A stretch of DNA of 64,000 nucleotides, taken from positions 1-64,000 of the forward strand of contig JAUNKR010000003.1 of the NCBI GenBank assembly GCA_030532705.1. The letters are read 5' to 3'. The translations under genes were made by a program, and so were the position numbers. This stretch comes from Peptostreptococcaceae bacterium (GTDB lineage Bacteria; Bacillota; Clostridia; Peptostreptococcales; Filifactoraceae). The notes below the pieces were generated by a model. That model was not told the DNA's origin. It was given only the letters and a program-made list of their open reading frames with translations, and did no database searches. Positions 26 to 7,377 of this stretch are shown here, in pieces. How positions within the stretch are numbered: the first letter of the stretch is position 1; every line of letters begins with the position of its first letter.

Positions 26-54
26 TTGCATAACTATGGTTGTTGTTGTATAAT
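26..54 (+). promoter_or_regulatory. sigma-A-type promoter of the first ATPase gene
   Basis: TTGCAT (26-31) and TATAAT (49-54) are separated by 17 bases. A TTG at 26 is in frame with the downstream gene, but it lies inside this promoter. That argues for translation from the later ATG at 89. Confidence 0.6.
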
Positions 55-88
55 GGTGATTGAAGTTAGAGTGATTGAGGTGATTGAA

Positions 89-1360
89 ATGAAAGAATAT
101 ATGCCTAGGATAGTAGATCAAATTCTAGAAGAAAGGTTAGGCTTTAAAGGTGCTATTTTGATCGAAGGCCCTAAGTGGTGTGGGAAAACAACAACAGCAA
201 GGCAATTTTCAAAAAGTATGATATCCATGGATCAACCGGATTTAACAAAGCAATATCTGGAAGTAGCAGATCTTAATCCTCTACAGCTTTTGCAAGGAGA
301 AACTCCTCGTCTTATAGATGAATGGCAAATTGCTCCTAATTTATGGAATGCAGTACGATATGAAGTAGATCAAAGGGATGACTTTGGGCAATTCATATTA
401 ACCGGATCCTCCGTACCCGTAGAATTAAATTCAACAGCACATACAGGGACTGGAAGAATATCCCGATTATATATGAGGCCAATGAGTTTATTTGAGTCAG
501 GAGAATCTTCTGGGACAATTTCTCTTAAAGAGTTGTTTGATGGGAAAAATATTGGCGCACAAGATAATCATACATTAGAAGATATTGCTTTTTTGATTTG
601 TAGAGGGGGCTGGCCAAGATCAGTTGGTCTTTCTGAAAAGAATGCGCTTTTCCAAGCGATTGACTACTTCGAAGCAGTTACATCTAATGATGTAAGCAGA
701 GTAGATAATGTTAAAAGAGACAAAGAAAAAGTAAAGAGGGTGCTAAGATCATACGCAAGAAATATTGCTACACAAACATCACTTGAAACGATTCGACAAG
801 ATATTATAACAAATATTCAAGATACTTTTGATAATTCAACTTTGTATTCATACTTAGATGCACTAAAAAAAATATTTATAATAGAAGATTCCCCATCTTG
901 GAACCCAAACTTAAGATCAAAGACCTCTATTAGAACAACCGATACAAGATATTTTGTTGATCCTTCTATAGCAGCGGCAGCATTAGGGATAGGGCCCAAA
1001 GATTTATTGAATGACCTTAATTCTATGGGATTATTTTTTGAAAATCTTTGTATAAGGGACTTGAGGATATATGCAGATGCTTTAGACGGGGGAATTTATC
1101 ATTACAGAGATAAGAATGACTTAGAATGTGATGCAGTCATACACTTAAGAGATGGGTCGTATGGTTTGATTGAGATAAAAATGGGAGGAGATCGGCTCAT
1201 CGAAGAAGGTGCTACAAATTTAAAAAAACTCTCATCAAAAATAGACACGGATCGTATGCATGAACCGGCTTTTTTAATGGTTTTGTGCGCAAAAGCTCCA
1301 TTTGCCTATAAAAGAGAAGATGGAGTATGGGTTGTTCCGGTCTGCTGTCTAAAACACTAG
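89..1360 (+). CDS. AAA-family ATPase with DUF4143 domain
   Basis: A 423-residue solitary ATPase of the AAA_14/DUF4143 family. Walker A is GPKWCGKT (about residues 27-34), a Walker B-like segment RLIDEW follows near 74-79, and a sensor-like ILTGSS lies near 103-108. The C-terminal half carries the DUF4143 region, with DLECDAVIHL and LIEIKMGG resembling a PD-(D/E)XK nuclease core. The ATG at 89 was chosen because GAGGTG lies 6-7 bases upstream and the promoter covers the earlier TTG. The gene stands alone and is followed by a strong terminator. Cellular function in this family is largely unknown. A second, divergent member lies at 6166. Confidence 0.88.
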   Translation: MKEYMPRIVDQILEERLGFKGAILIEGPKWCGKTTTARQFSKSMISMDQPDLTKQYLEVADLNPLQLLQGETPRLIDEWQIAPNLWNAVRYEVDQRDDFGQFILTGSSVPVELNSTAHTGTGRISRLYMRPMSLFESGESSGTISLKELFDGKNIGAQDNHTLEDIAFLICRGGWPRSVGLSEKNALFQAIDYFEAVTSNDVSRVDNVKRDKEKVKRVLRSYARNIATQTSLETIRQDIITNIQDTFDNSTLYSYLDALKKIFIIEDSPSWNPNLRSKTSIRTTDTRYFVDPSIAAAALGIGPKDLLNDLNSMGLFFENLCIRDLRIYADALDGGIYHYRDKNDLECDAVIHLRDGSYGLIEIKMGGDRLIEEGATNLKKLSSKIDTDRMHEPAFLMVLCAKAPFAYKREDGVWVVPVCCLKH

Positions 1361-1374
1361 TAAATATAAAACAC

Positions 1375-1432
1375 AAAAAAATCGCTCAACTGATATGTAT
1401 GATCCGGGGACATATCAAGCGAGCGATTTTTT
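1375..1432. terminator. bidirectional intrinsic terminator
   Basis: A long hairpin between convergent genes. An outer stem AAAAAATCGCTC / GAGCGATTTTTT encloses an inner stem TGATATGT / ACATATCA. A-rich and T-rich arms on both sides suit termination from both strands: the ATPase gene on + and the sigma-factor gene on -. Confidence 0.85.
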
Positions 1433-1565
1433 ATCTCAAGCAATTCGACCTTGGTGGAAGAATTGCCCAATTATCTATTGTATCCTGCCTTTGAGCAGGT
1501 TTTCTTTTCCTTTATATGTAGGGGGCTGGTCTACATACTCTTTGTCTGCCTACTTCTCCGAGCTG
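1433..1565. other. intergenic stretch with three short hairpins
   Basis: No gene is evident. Three inverted repeats follow one another: GCAATTC/GAATTGC (1440-1466), CCTGC/GCAGG followed by TTTTCTTTT on + (1485-1508), and ATGTAG/CTACAT (1516-1536). It is the 3' untranslated region of the minus-strand sigma gene. The second hairpin may be a back-up + strand terminator. Confidence 0.4.
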
Positions 1566-2147
1566 CTATTGTACATAATTTTGTTTTCTCAAATGTCCGA
1601 GTGCCTTTTTCTTAAGATACTTCACCTGATCGGTCGAAAGCGAGAGCTGTTCTCCGATCTTTCCAAGCGGCATCCCATACATCACATTCTGCGTGAGAAT
1701 GTATCGTTGCTCCTGATCGAGCGGACGAAGCAGATCATCGACCTCGATCTGCAAAAAGCCCTTCTCATCATAAGATGCACGATCCAGCTCATCCTCCGAA
1801 TAATAAGAAATGCTTTGCGACTTCCGAAGCTCCGCCTTTTTTAGATCCCAATAAAAGCAGGTGACAAATTTCGTCATATAACCTAAGAAACGGATCTCCG
1901 CCTTCTCCGGGTCGAAGCGCCGAATAAGCTCCAGTGCTCGAATACGACCCTGCTGGACCAGATCCTCCGACGCATACCCGAAATAATGACGGCAATACTT
2001 CACGATCAGCGGCTCCAGCATCAAAATCAGCTCGCCCTCCGCCTTACTGTCCCCGTTCTTTGCAAGATGAAGCAATGCATCCACCGCCTCATACGAATTT
2101 TTTTGGTGCCTGTGAGCACGTTTCAAGATATCTTTGTTTTCATTCAT
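1566..2147 (-). CDS. sigma-70 family RNA polymerase sigma factor (UviA/TcdR-like context)
   Basis: A 193-residue small sigma factor. Region 2 is seen around residues 60-105 (EDLVQQGRIRALELIRRFDP, then an aromatic stretch ending FYWD). Region 4 is seen around 140-190 (LDQEQRYIL, then the helix-turn-helix LGKIGEQLSLSTDQVKYLKK). Region 1.1 and most of region 3 are missing, as in alternative sigma factors. The start has AAGGAGG about 4 bases upstream. It is transcribed divergently from a BhlA/UviB-like holin and an amidase. By analogy with UviA/UviB of clostridial bacteriocin plasmids and TcdR/TcdE, it may switch on the lysis or secretion genes next to it; that role is inferred. Confidence 0.85.
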   Translation of the reverse strand: MNENKDILKRAHRHQKNSYEAVDALLHLAKNGDSKAEGELILMLEPLIVKYCRHYFGYASEDLVQQGRIRALELIRRFDPEKAEIRFLGYMTKFVTCFYWDLKKAELRKSQSISYYSEDELDRASYDEKGFLQIEVDDLLRPLDQEQRYILTQNVMYGMPLGKIGEQLSLSTDQVKYLKKKALGHLRKQNYVQ

Positions 2148-2202
2148 AGATCCTCCTTACTCAAAACTTTTCGATTTGTGTTATCACTCACACCGTGGCT
2201 AT

Positions 2203-2231
2203 ACTATACCAAAAATGTTTTCCGACTTCAA
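2203..2231 (-). promoter_or_regulatory. sigma-A-type promoter of the sigma-factor gene
   Basis: Read on the minus strand: TTGAAG (complement of 2226-2231), a 17-base spacer, then TATAGT (complement of 2203-2208). It lies about 55 bases upstream of the sigma-factor start. Confidence 0.55.
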
Positions 2232-2241
2232 GAATAAAACA

Positions 2242-2264
2242 AGAAATATTTCTAGAAAATTTTC
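2242..2264. promoter_or_regulatory. two adjacent perfect palindromes upstream of the holin gene
   Basis: AGAAATATTTCT (2242-2253) abuts GAAAATTTTC (2255-2264). Both are perfect dyads in the divergent intergenic region. They sit where an operator or an alternative-sigma promoter would be expected for the holin-amidase genes. Confidence 0.35.
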
Positions 2265-2323
2265 GCAAAAAATTCCCCGAAAAAATAAAATCCGCCATAT
2301 ACCATCGCAAGGAGGTGAAAGAA

Positions 2324-2482
2324 ATGGAAGAACTATTTCGAGAAGTAGCAAACTTTGGATTTCCGATGGTACTGAGCATCTACCTGCTTGTGCGCCTTGA
2401 AGCCAAAATGGAAAACCTGTCGATGTCCATTCAGCGACTCAGCGTAGTCGTCGAAAATGCCACCGAACAAAAAGTTCCATAA
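2324..2482 (+). CDS. BhlA/UviB-family holin-like peptide
   Basis: A 52-residue peptide with one N-terminal membrane segment (ANFGFPMVLSIYLLVRLE, about residues 9-26) and a charged amphipathic tail. This is the form of the BhlA/UviB holin-like family. The ATG has a perfect AAGGAGGTGA seven bases upstream, which sets the start. It lies divergent from a small sigma factor and upstream of an N-acetylmuramoyl-L-alanine amidase, so it most likely forms membrane lesions that release or activate the amidase, or export another protein. No other phage genes accompany it. Confidence 0.85.
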   Translation: MEELFREVANFGFPMVLSIYLLVRLEAKMENLSMSIQRLSVVVENATEQKVP

Positions 2483-2641
2483 AATCGGAAATATAGGATC
2501 ACAAAGAGGAAAACTACATCTGAAAAGAAAGTCATAATGGATCATTCAAAGTGGAGAAGCACAGTGTGAAAAGGAGAGAGTCGGTCAAAACATCCACTAT
2601 AATGACCGACAAAGAAGGACCGGACAACAAGAGAGGAACAG

Positions 2642-2707
2642 ATGCAGATCACAAAAACGAAGCTCCCGTCTAAAGTAGAAACCCAAACAAAGAAAAGAAA
2701 GGAATAA
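2642..2707 (+). CDS. possible 21-residue peptide upstream of the amidase
   Basis: A short lysine-rich reading frame (MQITKTKLPSK...). AGAGGA lies about 5 bases before its ATG, and the stop falls 2 bases before the amidase start. It could be a leader peptide coupling translation, or the relic of an older amidase N-terminus. No family is recognised. The rest of 2483-2709 shows no convincing gene. Confidence 0.2.
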   Translation: MQITKTKLPSKVETQTKKRKE

Positions 2708-2709
2708 TT

Positions 2710-3363
2710 ATGAACGAAAGAATTTTGAAAGAAAAACCTATTGAGCAAGTTATGGACGGACAGCTTATGTTTGAACAAAACTTGAATGAACAGCAAGTAC
2801 AGATCACAAAGATCATCGATTTTGCATCGGGAAACGGTGCACAAGGAGAAGGGACACATCCCGCAAGACATACGGAGCTTGTCAAAAAGACCATGCTCTC
2901 CAAATTCAACCACTCCTCACGCCGAGGCTCCAAGATCAAATACCTTGTCATCCACGACACCGGCAATCGCAGAAAAGGAGCCGATGCCATCGCCCATGCA
3001 AAATACTTCGGCAGAGCAAACCGCAATGCCTCCGCACACTATTTTGTGGACGATCACAATATCGTGCAGATCGTTGCCGATGAGCAGGCGAGCTGGCACT
3101 GTGGCGATGGCAGAGGTCGAAACGGCATCACCAACGAAAACTCCATCGGTATTGAGATGTGCATCAACAGTGATGGAGACTACGACCTTGCATTCGTCAA
3201 TACCGCGGTGCTGATCGCAAAACTTATGGACAAACACAAGATCCCGATCAGCCGAGTCGTTCGACACTACGATGCATCCGGCAAGATCTGCCCCCAAAGT
3301 ATGTACGCACACAATTGGCAAGAATGGGAAGAACTCAAAAGCCTTGTCGAAATGTACCACTGA
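2710..3363 (+). CDS. N-acetylmuramoyl-L-alanine amidase (Amidase_2), endolysin-like
   Basis: A 217-residue peptidoglycan amidase that cuts between MurNAc and L-alanine. After about 75 polar residues the Amidase_2 domain begins at KYLVIHDTGN. Expected zinc ligands are His in VIHDTG, His in VVRHYDASGK and Cys in KICPQS; GIEMCI carries the usual acidic residue. There is no signal peptide, so export probably depends on the holin-like peptide upstream. AAAGGA precedes the ATG. No wall-binding repeat is visible at the C-terminus. With the sigma factor and holin it makes a compact lysis or secretion cassette. Confidence 0.9.
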   Translation: MNERILKEKPIEQVMDGQLMFEQNLNEQQVQITKIIDFASGNGAQGEGTHPARHTELVKKTMLSKFNHSSRRGSKIKYLVIHDTGNRRKGADAIAHAKYFGRANRNASAHYFVDDHNIVQIVADEQASWHCGDGRGRNGITNENSIGIEMCINSDGDYDLAFVNTAVLIAKLMDKHKIPISRVVRHYDASGKICPQSMYAHNWQEWEELKSLVEMYH

Positions 3364-3394
3364 TCTAGACAACTTACAATTTCATATTTACACG

Positions 3395-3426
3395 CAAAAA
3401 AAGAAGCCGCGCGGCTTCTTTTTTTA
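3395..3426. terminator. bidirectional intrinsic terminator
   Basis: A perfect palindromic stem GAAGCCGC/GCGGCTTC, flanked by seven A and eight T, lies between the amidase (+) and the convergent stalk-domain protein (-). Confidence 0.9.
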
Positions 3427-3490
3427 CTTATTAAACTTTATTGCAGGATCACAAGTGCCGATCACTCAGCATCCAATCATGCCGATTATT

Positions 3491-4369
3491 TTACTTAATC
3501 TCAAGTACGGATGCAGATCCTCTATCTTTGCTATAGTTATAATCTGCTTCAACCATCGCTGTTCTCATGTTGGAATCCGTGTAGATTGTCAAATTGATAT
3601 TATAACCTTTGTAATCTTTCAATACACCCTTGATCATGTCGCGAACGTCACTTTCCACAAAAGAAGCAAAATCATCCTCAAGATTCTCACGATCACGCTT
3701 ATTCGTTACACGATTATTCCAATCTTGACCTTCTGCACCTGCTCTAGTAAAAGTTCCGCTATATGGATATAGAGATACTTCTACTGCACGAGAGGAGATG
3801 GACACCTGACCGCCGAATTTTTGATTTCGGTCGAATCTTGTATTTGCTCTCAGATACTTGATCTCACCTTCAAGATCCTTGATAAAGGTACGCTTTTCAG
3901 ACGAGCTTAGGTCAGACAATTCTTTTGTTCCGTTGTCTTTCTTCTTGTTATCCGTAGAAGAAGAACCTTTCAGCTTCTCGATCTCAGCCTTTAGCTGATT
4001 GTTCTCATATTGAAGACGAGAGATCTCTGCTGTTTGAGCCTGTACTTGCTGCTGAAGTTGAGCAACATTGCCCATCGAACCATTATTATTCGAGCTTGAA
4101 TTTACGGATACGGTCTTGCTTGCCTTGTCATAAGCTGCTGTCGCGATACCCATTTGGTTCAGCGCCGCGATCGAAACATAAGTTCTGCCGTCCTGAGTGA
4201 TGAAAGGACGCATAGAGCTGTCAGTTACTGCAAAGTTTGAGCCGTTCACACGAAGGACCACGCCATAGTTTGCTACCAGATTTTTCTTATCCGGAGTCGC
4301 TGCTGCCAGAGAAGACAACATCATCAATGAAGCCAGTGCACCTGCAGCCAATTTCTTATTAAATTTCAT
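3491..4369 (-). CDS. secreted stalk-domain (copper amine oxidase N-terminal-like) coiled-coil protein
   Basis: 292 residues. A signal peptide (MKFNKKLAAGALASLMMLSS) is followed by a single copper-amine-oxidase N-terminal-like stalk domain (about 30-95: VVLRVNGSNFAVTDSSM to GRTYVSIAALNQMGIAT). A coiled coil follows (about 105-140, VAQLQQQVQAQTAEISRLQ), then a polar linker and a C-terminal globular region of unknown type. AGGAGG lies 5-6 bases before the ATG. A longer in-frame N-terminus upstream lacks a ribosome site and would bury the signal peptide. The architecture matches the protein at 14459. Probably attached to or outside the cell wall; function unknown. Confidence 0.82.
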   Translation of the reverse strand: MKFNKKLAAGALASLMMLSSLAAATPDKKNLVANYGVVLRVNGSNFAVTDSSMRPFITQDGRTYVSIAALNQMGIATAAYDKASKTVSVNSSSNNNGSMGNVAQLQQQVQAQTAEISRLQYENNQLKAEIEKLKGSSSTDNKKKDNGTKELSDLSSSEKRTFIKDLEGEIKYLRANTRFDRNQKFGGQVSISSRAVEVSLYPYSGTFTRAGAEGQDWNNRVTNKRDRENLEDDFASFVESDVRDMIKGVLKDYKGYNINLTIYTDSNMRTAMVEADYNYSKDRGSASVLEIK

Positions 4370-4412
4370 AAAAACCTCCTTATTATTTAGGGAAACTCCC
4401 TTTGCTAAAAAT

Positions 4413-4421
4413 ATTGTAACA
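4413..4421 (-). promoter_or_regulatory. extended -10 promoter of the stalk-domain gene
   Basis: On the minus strand TGTTACAAT forms an extended -10 (TG-N-TACAAT) about 45 bases before the start codon. No good -35 is seen. Confidence 0.4.
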
Positions 4422-4438
4422 CAAAAAATCAAGATATT

Positions 4439-4478
4439 TATTACAAAAAGGTTAAAAAAACGTAACATATTGTGGAAA
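4439..4478 (+). repeat. 40-bp intergenic repeat, copy 1
   Basis: Identical over 40 bases to 7394-7433. The core is AAAAAGGTTAAAAAAACG followed by TAACATATTGTGGAAA. It lies between the divergent promoters of the stalk-domain gene (-) and the DUF3990 gene (+). Copy 2 lies directly before the promoter of another stalk-domain gene. It is likely a shared operator or a remnant of duplicated promoter DNA. Confidence 0.85.
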
Positions 4479-4487
4479 TCAAACGAT

Positions 4488-4516
4488 TTGACAAAGTGAT
4501 ACTGTAGTATTACAAT
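4488..4516 (+). promoter_or_regulatory. strong sigma-A promoter of the DUF3990/HTH operon
   Basis: Consensus TTGACA (4488-4493), 17 bases, TACAAT (4511-4516), about 23 bases before the ATG at 4539. Confidence 0.75.
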
Positions 4517-4538
4517 AAAAGAGAGTGAGGGGTACGAT

Positions 4539-5261
4539 ATGAAACAAGAATGGGTGCTATACCATGGCTCAGACCATATTATAAAAAAACCAATATTCGG
4601 AGCCGGGAAAAACTATAATGATTACGGCAAAGGCTTTTATTGCACAAAAGATCTTGAACTTGCAAAAGAATGGGCTTGCATGCAAGAGGTCGACGGATAT
4701 GCAAATCGATATATCCTGGATCCCGACGGTTTGAATTTTATGCATTTGACCGAAGGGAAATTCAATATTCTAAACTGGTTAGCTATCTTACTTGCAAACC
4801 GAAAATTTGACATCACCTCATCGATCGGCAACAATGCAAAAGATTTTATCCTGTCACGCTTTTTGCCTAATATCGACAATGTGGATGTGATCATTGGTTA
4901 TCGTGCCGATGATTCCTACTTTTCTTTTGCGGAAGACTTTGTGAACAACACGATCTCCTTGAGAGATCTAAGTAAAGCGATGCAGCTCGGTAGACTGGGC
5001 GAACAAGTGGTGCTGATCTCTGAGCGTTCCTTTGAGCAGATCGAATTTATCGGGCACGAGATCGTCGACGGTACTGAATATTATTCAAAAAGGATCGAGC
5101 GTGACAAAAATGCCAGAGCAGACTATGATAGCAAAAAGAAAAACCTGCAGCAGCTCATGGACGATTTATTTGTACTCGATATTATAAGGGAGGATATGAA
5201 ACATGATGATCCACGCCTACGATCCGCTATATCTGGCGAAAGCATCCCGTACCATCGGTAA
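4539..5261 (+). CDS. DUF3990 ADP-ribosyltransferase-like protein (putative toxin)
   Basis: 240 residues of the DUF3990 type, which has an ADP-ribosyltransferase-like fold. An H-Y-E triad can be read: His9 in LYHGSD, Tyr34 in GKGFYCTKDLELAKEWA and a Glu near 155 in GEQVVLIS. The PARP-like 'YHG...GKGFY' N-terminus is clear. A GAGTGAGG ribosome site precedes the ATG. The 3' end overlaps the next gene, an HTH protein, by 59 bases, so the two are translationally coupled. A toxin-antitoxin role is inferred from this pairing. The substrate cannot be told from sequence. Confidence 0.78.
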   Translation: MKQEWVLYHGSDHIIKKPIFGAGKNYNDYGKGFYCTKDLELAKEWACMQEVDGYANRYILDPDGLNFMHLTEGKFNILNWLAILLANRKFDITSSIGNNAKDFILSRFLPNIDNVDVIIGYRADDSYFSFAEDFVNNTISLRDLSKAMQLGRLGEQVVLISERSFEQIEFIGHEIVDGTEYYSKRIERDKNARADYDSKKKNLQQLMDDLFVLDIIREDMKHDDPRLRSAISGESIPYHR

Positions 5262-5829
5262 TATGCTTCATGATGCGGTACTGGAGTTTGGGATGGACGG
5301 TTCCGACTTTCTCAAAAGATTTATCCGATCCGGTATTGCCAAACAATTTGAAAGCGGCAACCCAAAATATATTGCCGGCAAAAGTGGCATGGAGCTCTTT
5401 TTGGATGTGATGGAACATACCGGAGAAAGTGTTGAAGAGCGATCCGTCGAAAGCTACGAGCGAAGCGACGTTTATTGGGTCGGTTGGGTGTTGGCGCATT
5501 ATCAGTGGTATTCGGGACACAGCTTCGAGAAGATCCTTCGTGTGATCCCTTACGAAAGATTTTTGCAACTCTATCCTACACTTCACGAAGCCGATGTGCG
5601 AAAAAACTATGAAGTTCTGGATAACTATTTTATAAACGCCGAAAGCCCTCTCAGGACCATAAGAAAAAAATGCGGCATAACCCAAGAAGCACTCGCGGAG
5701 GCAGCAGGCGTATCCATCCATGCGATCAGAGCCTACGAGCGAAAAACCAAATCACTGAACAAAGCCCAATTCGATACCGTTGTACGCCTTGCCAAAGTGC
5801 TAAAATGTGATCCATCTCAACTTATCTAA
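5203..5829 (+). CDS. HTH (Xre-type) protein partnered with DUF3990 (putative antitoxin)
   Basis: 208 residues. The N-terminal 150 form an all-helical-looking region with aromatic motifs (YWVGWVLAHYQWYSG) that I cannot place in a named family. The C-terminal 58 are a clear Cro/C1-type helix-turn-helix (IRKKCGITQEALAEAAGVSI). The start ATG follows GGGAGG by 9 bases and lies inside the end of the DUF3990 gene. This order suggests the protein neutralises and/or represses the ADP-ribosyltransferase-like partner. A strong terminator follows. Confidence 0.78.
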   Translation: MMIHAYDPLYLAKASRTIGNMLHDAVLEFGMDGSDFLKRFIRSGIAKQFESGNPKYIAGKSGMELFLDVMEHTGESVEERSVESYERSDVYWVGWVLAHYQWYSGHSFEKILRVIPYERFLQLYPTLHEADVRKNYEVLDNYFINAESPLRTIRKKCGITQEALAEAAGVSIHAIRAYERKTKSLNKAQFDTVVRLAKVLKCDPSQLI

Positions 5830-5850
5830 AAAATATGATCCATCGGACCC

Positions 5851-5889
5851 AAAAACTGTTGTAGATCCAAAATACAACAGTTTTTTTTT
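5851..5889 (+). terminator. intrinsic terminator after the DUF3990/HTH pair
   Basis: AAAAACTGTTGTA pairs with TACAACAG followed by nine T. Confidence 0.88.
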
Positions 5890-5891
5890 CA

Positions 5892-6084
5892 TTTATACTC
5901 CGGTAAAATAACAACGGATATTTTTATCATCTATACTCGAGAACACACAACGAATGATCCTCAATGCTTATATTTTAAAAATAAAACTTTGTCGTTTATA
6001 CTCGACAAAATATCGAGTACATATAATTTTATCGACTATACTCGATAAAAATCATAAAAATCTATTGATTGTCGAGTATAAATG
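5892..6084. repeat. cluster of TTTATACTCGAC boxes in the promoter region of the second AAA ATPase
   Basis: At least five direct or inverted copies of a TTTATACTCGA(C/T) box lie at 5892, 5931, 5994, 6034 and, inverted, 6067-6084 (TTGTCGAGTATAAA). The copy at 5994 is followed at once by an inverted half-site TATCGAGTACATA. The copies at 5994 and 6067 are exact inverted matches over about 14 bases. They lie in an AT-rich leader just before a DUF4143 ATPase gene and look like multiple operator sites or a structured target sequence. Confidence 0.7.
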
Positions 6085-6165
6085 ATATAAACTGAAATCA
6101 TATCCGAATGGAAATGAAAAACTTATGGTACTAACCTATATAAGACTTACATGAGGAGGAAAGAA

Positions 6166-7377
6166 ATGATCAAGCGAGAATTGTATATGAACCGCATCCG
6201 TCCTTTCATCGATACTGATCTGATCAAAGTGATCACCGGGATCCGGCGATCCGGAAAATCTGTGATGCTCAAACTGATCCAAGAGGAATTGATTGAATCA
6301 GGCATTGATTCCTCAAGATTCATCTCGATCAATTTTGAAGATCTACGGTTGGAACATCTTCGCAATGCGGTTTCTCTTCATCTGGAAATACGCGAAAGAG
6401 CAAAAAATACCGAAGGCAAAGTGTATTTGTTTTTGGACGAGATCCAAGAAGTTTCCGATTGGGAAAAGTGCATCAATTCCCTGCGTGTATCGTTAGATTG
6501 TGACATATACATTACAGGCTCTAATGCCAAACTACTATCCGGCGAATTGGCAACTTATTTGGGAGGGCGCTATGTGGAATTTGTGATCTACCCTTTTTCA
6601 TTCAGCGAGTTTCTGGAGCTTTACCATGTGATCGACCCTGAGGTGTCCGTACAACGATCCTTTCAGAAATACCTTACCACCGGAGGAATGCCTTATCTCT
6701 TTAATATCCGCTATGAGACCGAGCCGACAAAACAATACCTGACTGACCTGTTTAACTCCGTACAACTTAAAGATATTGTCAAAAGATACAAGGTCCGTGA
6801 TGTCGAACTTCTCGAAAGGATCATCGCTTATGTAATGGCAAATATCGGCACGACCTTTTCAGCATCCTCCCTTGTCAAATTCCTAAAAAACGAGCGCCGC
6901 ATGACCTCTACCGACACCGTGATGAACTACCTCAAATATTGTTGCGATTCATACCTTTTTTACCAGGTGAAGCGTGAAGATCTTCAAGGAAAGCAGATCC
7001 TTATGACAAATGAAAAGTATTATATCGCAGATCATGGCATCCGAGAAGCCGTTTTTGGAGGGAACTTGAGAGATATTCAGTTGATCCTCGAAAATATTGT
7101 ATATGTAGAACTTTTACGCAGAGGGTATCAAGTGACGATAGGAAAGACAGAGAACAAAGAGATCGACTTCGTGTGCGAAAAACAAGGCCAAAAACACTAT
7201 GTCCAAGTTGCCTATATCCTTGCTGACCAAAGCACCATCGACCGAGAATTTGGTGTGTTTGATAAAATTCGAGACCATTTTCCGAAATATGTCATCACCA
7301 TGGATGAGATCGATCGAAGTCAAAACGGCATCATCCATAGAAACATCCGTGACTTCTTATTATCGAGCGAATGGTAG
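6166..7377 (+). CDS. AAA-family ATPase with DUF4143 domain
   Basis: 403 residues. Walker A is GIRRSGKS (about 25-32) and Walker B is YLFLDEIQEV (about 87-96), followed by YITGSNAKLLSGELATYLGG. The C-terminal DUF4143 part has a nuclease-like core (YVELLRRGYQV, then KEIDFV, then YVQVAY). The ATG at 6166 has GAGGAGGA six bases upstream; the ATG at 6151 overlaps that site. It is monocistronic and preceded by a cluster of TTTATACTCGAC boxes. Related in type, but not closely in sequence, to the gene at 89. Function unknown. Confidence 0.88.
   Translation: MIKRELYMNRIRPFIDTDLIKVITGIRRSGKSVMLKLIQEELIESGIDSSRFISINFEDLRLEHLRNAVSLHLEIRERAKNTEGKVYLFLDEIQEVSDWEKCINSLRVSLDCDIYITGSNAKLLSGELATYLGGRYVEFVIYPFSFSEFLELYHVIDPEVSVQRSFQKYLTTGGMPYLFNIRYETEPTKQYLTDLFNSVQLKDIVKRYKVRDVELLERIIAYVMANIGTTFSASSLVKFLKNERRMTSTDTVMNYLKYCCDSYLFYQVKREDLQGKQILMTNEKYYIADHGIREAVFGGNLRDIQLILENIVYVELLRRGYQVTIGKTENKEIDFVCEKQGQKHYVQVAYILADQSTIDREFGVFDKIRDHFPKYVITMDEIDRSQNGIIHRNIRDFLLSSEW

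What the first reader, a model, noticed from the sequence alone, without database searches (positions are those of the whole stretch)
1566..3363. Stand-alone sigma factor / holin / amidase cassette without a prophage
Seen: a small sigma factor is divergent from a BhlA/UviB-type holin-like peptide, followed by an Amidase_2 enzyme without signal peptide. No capsid, tail, integrase or bacteriocin gene lies within several kb. Known: UviA-UviB and TcdR-TcdE pair a sigma factor with a holin for release of bacteriocin or toxin. Inference: a domesticated lysis or secretion switch that may release a cargo encoded elsewhere.
Basis: partly seen in the sequence, partly recalled or inferred. Interest (0 to 1): 0.72.

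Follow-up and report, generated by a model that had tools for sequence, protein, structure and literature searches.

The report
Split sigma–YvrJ–amidase release module
A bacterium carries, with no virus attached, a control gene, a tiny membrane-piercing-type protein and a cell-wall-cutting enzyme, and the same on-switch sequence also sits in front of a second, distant pair of tiny uncharacterised genes; together they look like one widespread, undescribed cell-release system of Bacillota rather than viral debris.

Summary
The three genes are real. The "holin" is not BhlA/UviB: it is a YvrJ-family protein (PF12841). The locus is half of a widespread but apparently undescribed module: [sigma factor] + DUF1659 + DUF2922 + YvrJ + amidase. 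In 30 strong phylum-wide DUF2922 loci, DUF1659 is adjacent in 30 and YvrJ nearby in 25; amidases recur. In this genome the DUF1659–DUF2922 pair lies on another contig, but both halves carry the same non-sigmaA motif (TTCCC-N16/17-CCATATA), which has only three sites in the assembly. In a sister genus an analogous motif precedes the amidase, DUF1659 and, once, the sigma gene. Among 11 family genomes, sigma orthologues occur in exactly the nine that hold DUF1659/DUF2922. YvrJ relatives on viral contigs match a PHROG holin family, and at least nine lie beside endolysins, supporting a holin-like role. G001 has the same neighbours and no prophage, so a decayed prophage is unlikely. Best reading: a cell-owned, sigma-controlled holin/endolysin switch analogous to UviA–UviB–amidase, with DUF1659/DUF2922 as candidate cargo. 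Gene association and shared promoters are well supported; export, lysis and cargo are inferred. YvrJ was not found in three genomes that keep the sigma factor and DUF pair.

The parts
1566..2147 (-). small sigma-70 family factor (193 aa), divergent from yvrJ; orthologues occur in exactly the nine of 11 family genomes that hold DUF1659/DUF2922
2203..2231 (-). sigmaA-type promoter of the sigma gene, TTGAAG-N17-TATAGT with TG before the second hexamer; the second-hexamer block is conserved in G001
2272..2301 (+). non-sigmaA promoter-like motif before yvrJ, TTCCCC...CCATATA, shared with the unlinked DUF1659 gene (contig C30:53191-53218) and with both G001 loci; presumed target of the sigma factor
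2324..2482 (+). YvrJ-family (PF12841) one-TM, holin-like peptide, 52 aa
2710..3363 (+). Amidase_2 N-acetylmuramoyl-L-alanine amidase, 217 aa, no signal peptide; closest solved relative is the amidase XlyA (3hmb, E 9.5e-28)
3396..3426 (.). A-run/GC-stem/T-run inverted repeat behind the amidase, terminator-like; read directly from the sequence and not listed by the scan tool
   Evidence: sequence; not listed

Best explanation
A cell-owned, sigma-controlled release module. The sigma gene is transcribed by the housekeeping polymerase. When the sigma factor is made or freed, it drives two dedicated promoters: yvrJ (with the amidase) here, and the unlinked DUF1659-DUF2922 operon. YvrJ, a one-TM peptide of a family that viruses often carry in the holin position, would permeabilise or thin the membrane. 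The signal-less amidase then reaches the wall, and the signal-less DUF1659/DUF2922 proteins are released or assembled outside, with lysis of a subpopulation or without lysis. Shown: gene identities, conserved linkage, shared motifs, co-occurrence, viral context of YvrJ. Inferred: that this sigma factor reads those motifs, that YvrJ acts as a holin, and that the DUF proteins are the cargo.
For: Family calls: 5, 20. Own-genome DUF1659-DUF2922 pair: 21, 22, 26. Shared motif with three sites in 2.08 Mb, two of them the module's: 27, 93. Sister-genus motif before the amidase, DUF1659 and the sigma gene, with one further site per genome, in line with the reversed control: 69, 88. Sigma orthologue present in exactly the nine DUF1659/DUF2922 genomes of 11: 21, 22, 37. 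Phylum synteny, DUF1659 30/30 and YvrJ 25/30: 44. YvrJ with DUF2922 over 398 genomes 155/50/17/176, odds ratio 32: 43, 65, 68. Viral YvrJ with PHROG endolysins near it in 9 of 10 tested loci, and matching phrog_4898 'holin': 59, 61, 62, 79. Amidase related to phage-type amidases, no signal: 7, 72, 85. Comparable sigma + holin + endolysin + signal-less cargo systems: PMC9527704.
Against: YvrJ was not found in G003, G004 and G009, which keep the sigma factor and the DUF pair, nor in 50 of 205 DUF2922 genomes. DUF2922 occurs in about half of the sampled phylum, mostly as one copy, which looks more like a household function than altruistic lysis. The window YvrJ itself matches phrog_4898 only weakly (E 0.02). 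Viral neighbours were chosen for test because they looked like hydrolases, and in other viral contigs YvrJ lies near packaging or capsid-type genes. A plain alignment of the two upstream regions was not better than window controls. The motif was derived from the sites it is used to support. Co-occurrence counts ignore phylogeny.
Confidence: 0.5

Rival explanations
1. The sigma factor mainly controls DUF1659/DUF2922, which do an unknown cytoplasmic or envelope job; YvrJ is a membrane anchor or scaffold for them and the amidase remodels the wall without lysis or export.
For: Sigma factor and DUF pair persist where YvrJ was not found; about half of sampled phylum genomes carry DUF2922, mostly in one copy; DUF1659 is adjacent to DUF2922 in all 30 loci read.
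Against: YvrJ relatives in viruses often sit beside endolysins and match a holin PHROG; an amidase without a signal needs a route out of the cell.
Confidence: 0.3
2. Remnant of a decayed prophage lysis cassette.
For: The amidase is related to phage endolysins; YvrJ occurs on viral contigs.
Against: Same neighbours and no phage genes in G001; promoter motif conserved; no DUF1659/DUF2922 found in INPHARED phages or viral contigs; the module is phylum-wide in cellular genomes.
Confidence: 0.06
3. A competence- or DNA-release-linked lysis module: in another clade the operon carries a ComK-like regulator instead of the sigma factor.
For: A ComK-family protein (PF06338, E 1.5e-6, above cut-off) lies behind YvrJ-amidase in L097, and similar proteins in other loci.
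Against: Most of the similar proteins do not pass the Pfam cut-off; no ComK was looked for in this genome; no competence genes were tested.
Confidence: 0.12
4. A sporulation (mother-cell lysis) module.
For: Amidases serve that role in spore formers (general knowledge).
Against: No association of DUF2922 with Spo0A (178/27/168/25, odds ratio 0.98); no Spo0A found in this assembly, which is 72% complete.
Confidence: 0.02

Closest known systems
UviA-UviB-amidase (Bcn5 bacteriocin) and TcdR-TcdE-type release systems of clostridia
   Same: A dedicated sigma factor, a small holin-like membrane protein, a peptidoglycan amidase and cytosolic products without signal peptides; in G006-G008 the amidase is divergent upstream of the sigma gene, as described for uviA in C. 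perfringens (PMC9527704).
   Different: YvrJ is not detectably BhlA; no toxin or bacteriocin gene is seen; the candidate cargo is DUF1659/DUF2922 and here lies at an unlinked locus; distribution is phylum-wide.
Bacillus subtilis SigO-RsoA regulon (oxdC-yvrL, yvrJ, yvrI-yvrHa)
   Same: A dedicated alternative sigma system transcribes a yvrJ gene (PMC8103513).
   Different: There the sigma domains are split over two proteins and the main target is oxalate decarboxylase; B. subtilis gave no DUF1659/DUF2922 match in the control searches. Here one protein carries both domains and the partners are the amidase and the DUF pair.
Phage lysis cassettes with YvrJ/phrog_4898 holin-like proteins
   Same: Same protein family (hhalign 99.6%), often next to an endolysin.
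   Different: Viral copies lack DUF1659/DUF2922 nearby; the cellular module has its own sigma factor and promoters.

Membership tests
YvrJ family (PF12841) | Match above the Pfam gathering score | tested here: met
   59.7 bits against a cut-off of 29.5
BhlA/UviB holin family (PF10960) | Match to PF10960 or profile-profile similarity | tested here: not met
   No PF10960 match in the assembly; hhalign probability 2.7%
UviA-UviB / TcdR-TcdE release systems | Sigma factor next to a holin-like gene and an amidase | tested here: met
   Window and G001 loci
UviA-UviB / TcdR-TcdE release systems | BhlA- or TcdE-family holin | tested here: not met
   The peptide is YvrJ; only BhlA was compared directly
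UviA-UviB / TcdR-TcdE release systems | Bacteriocin or large toxin cargo under the same sigma factor | tested here: inconclusive
   No such gene near by; the shared motif marks yvrJ, DUF1659-DUF2922 and one probable chance site in the incomplete assembly
UviA-UviB / TcdR-TcdE release systems | Holin-dependent release of cargo | not testable with these tools
   Needs an experiment
SigO-RsoA regulon | Sigma region 2 and region 4 on separate proteins | tested here: not met
   Both on one protein
Phage holin (phrog_4898) | Profile match | tested here: inconclusive
   Window protein E 0.02; viral YvrJ proteins down to 1e-12
Phage holin (phrog_4898) | Membrane permeabilisation timed with an endolysin | not testable with these tools
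   Needs an experiment
Decayed prophage | Other phage genes or a complete prophage at this site in relatives | tested here: not met
   None in the neighbourhood read here or in the 5-kb G001 contig; the left flank ends at the contig end

The most novel reading that the evidence does not exclude
DUF1659-DUF2922-YvrJ-amidase is an undescribed, phylum-wide, cell-encoded release system of Bacillota, switched on by a dedicated sigma factor in some lineages and perhaps a ComK-like regulator in others, that exports or assembles two tiny conserved proteins.
Probability: 0.3. Interest if true: 0.8.

Novelty: new variant of a known kind. Interest (0 to 1): 0.6.

Why it matters
DUF1659, DUF2922 and YvrJ are common in Bacillota (DUF2922 in 205 and YvrJ in 172 of 398 genomes sampled), yet full-text search of the held library found one paper with DUF1659, none with DUF2922 and five with YvrJ. 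Tying them into one regulon with a sigma factor and an endolysin-like amidase, and placing YvrJ beside phage endolysins, gives these families a testable role. If right, sigma-controlled holin release would be a widespread cell function and not a peculiarity of toxin and bacteriocin loci.

Tried and rejected
BhlA/UviB identity. INPHARED phage records: no match to the window YvrJ or to one DUF2922. Solved structures: no convincing relative of DUF1659/DUF2922. DUF1659 and DUF2922 are not shown to be homologous (hhalign 6%). Plain local alignment of the two upstream regions could not separate them from A/T-run controls, so the case rests on the two-block motif. Sporulation. Defence systems: no PADLOC match. 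Folding of DUF1659/DUF2922 was not attempted, because their loci came from a tool outside the stated rule for structure prediction. P. sordellii plasmid hits were not opened.

Full report
What is there. The sigma factor (1566-2147, minus), the 52-aa membrane peptide (2324-2482, plus) and the signal-less Amidase_2 protein (2710-3363, plus) are real. The peptide belongs to YvrJ (PF12841, E 2e-16), not to BhlA/UviB: PF10960 has no match in the assembly and the profiles do not match (probability 2.7%). The amidase's closest solved relative is XlyA, which is a PBSX prophage endolysin of B. subtilis (from general knowledge). Proteins examined over 26-7377 show DUF4143 ATPases, a secreted-type protein, DUF3990 and HTH proteins, and no phage structural genes. 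Window base 1 is the start of contig C24.

Conservation. G001, same genus, has sigma factor, YvrJ and amidase in the same arrangement, with a DUF4143-type gene like the window's on one side and a relative of the window's 3491-4468 protein on the other, and no prophage on its 5-kb contig. In three genomes of a sister genus (G006-G008) the order is amidase, divergent sigma gene, YvrJ, DUF1659, DUF2922 (the G008 YvrJ and DUF genes). In 30 strong DUF2922 loci across the phylum DUF1659 is adjacent in 30 and YvrJ nearby in 25; amidases follow in several and a sigma gene precedes in three. These 30 are the best-scoring matches, not a random draw. DUF2922 occurs in 205 and YvrJ in 172 of the same 398 genomes, jointly in 155; phylogeny is not corrected for. 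Plasmids of Paraclostridium carry DUF1659-DUF2922-YvrJ with a nearby amidase.

The missing half in this genome. DUF1659-DUF2922 lie on contig C30:52714-53159. Upstream of both that pair and yvrJ, in G000 and in G001, is TTCCC-N16/17-CCATATA, ending some 20-30 bases before the start codon. A relaxed form of the pattern has three sites in the 2.08-Mb assembly, two of them these; G002, where YvrJ, DUF1659, DUF2922 and the sigma orthologue were not found, has two sites that look like chance. The sigma gene itself has a sigmaA-type promoter, TTGAAG-N17-TATAGT. In the sister genus GTATACCTTTT-N12/13-GATATTA precedes the amidase in G006 and G007 (weakly in G008), DUF1659 in all three and the sigma gene in G008. 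Genome-wide there is one further site per genome, at the level of the reversed control. The motifs were derived from these sites, so the tests are not fully independent; plain alignment was not discriminating.

Co-occurrence. Sigma orthologues (E about 1e-28 or better) are in exactly nine of 11 family genomes, the nine that have DUF1659 and DUF2922. YvrJ is in six of those nine. So the sigma factor follows the DUF pair more closely than it follows YvrJ.

Is YvrJ a holin? 33 viral contigs encode YvrJ relatives, profile match 99.6%. Ten neighbours that looked like hydrolases were tested; nine match PHROG endolysin families. All five viral YvrJ proteins tested match phrog_4898 'holin' (E 0.007 to 1e-12). 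In other contigs YvrJ lies near packaging or capsid-type genes, so the lysis position is common, not universal. None of the viral loci carries DUF1659/DUF2922 nearby.

Mechanism. By analogy with UviA-UviB-amidase and TcdR-TcdE (PMC9527704), the sigma factor would switch on YvrJ, amidase and the DUF pair together; YvrJ opens the membrane, the amidase the wall, and DUF1659/DUF2922 are released or assembled. Steps after transcription are inference. YvrJ under an alternative sigma system is known from B. subtilis SigO-RsoA (PMC8103513).

Alternatives. A prophage remnant is unlikely on synteny and distribution. Sporulation is unsupported: DUF2922 is independent of Spo0A. A ComK-like neighbour in other clades leaves a competence or DNA-release link open. 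A household role for the DUF pair, with YvrJ as anchor, is the main rival.

Literature. Full-text search of the held open-access library gave one paper with DUF1659, none with DUF2922 and five with YvrJ; papers outside that library were not searched.

Noticed in passing
L097:16-765, also L087, L102, L106, L110, L115, L116: ComK-like proteins behind the YvrJ-amidase genes; L097 passes the Pfam cut-off for ComK (E 1.5e-6), L087 is below it, the rest are similar by alignment only.
   Followed up: partly
L117, L118, L121, L122, L125, L126, L128, L129, L132, gene directly after YvrJ: A membrane-type protein of about 103-120 aa follows YvrJ in many viral contigs; the one tested has no PHROG match. 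Possibly a second holin or antiholin.
   Followed up: no
L013 (G010 contig C36, 11.8 kb): Small contig, plasmid-like by size, with DUF2922, DUF1659, Amidase_3 and YvrJ; plasmid nature not tested.
   Followed up: partly
L062:2085-2552 (G010 contig C28): Next to the sigma orthologue lies a second small protein with a weak sigma region 4 match, reminiscent of split sigma factors.
   Followed up: no
window 4539-5829: DUF3990 protein overlapping an HTH_3 protein, a possible toxin-antitoxin-like pair.
   Followed up: no
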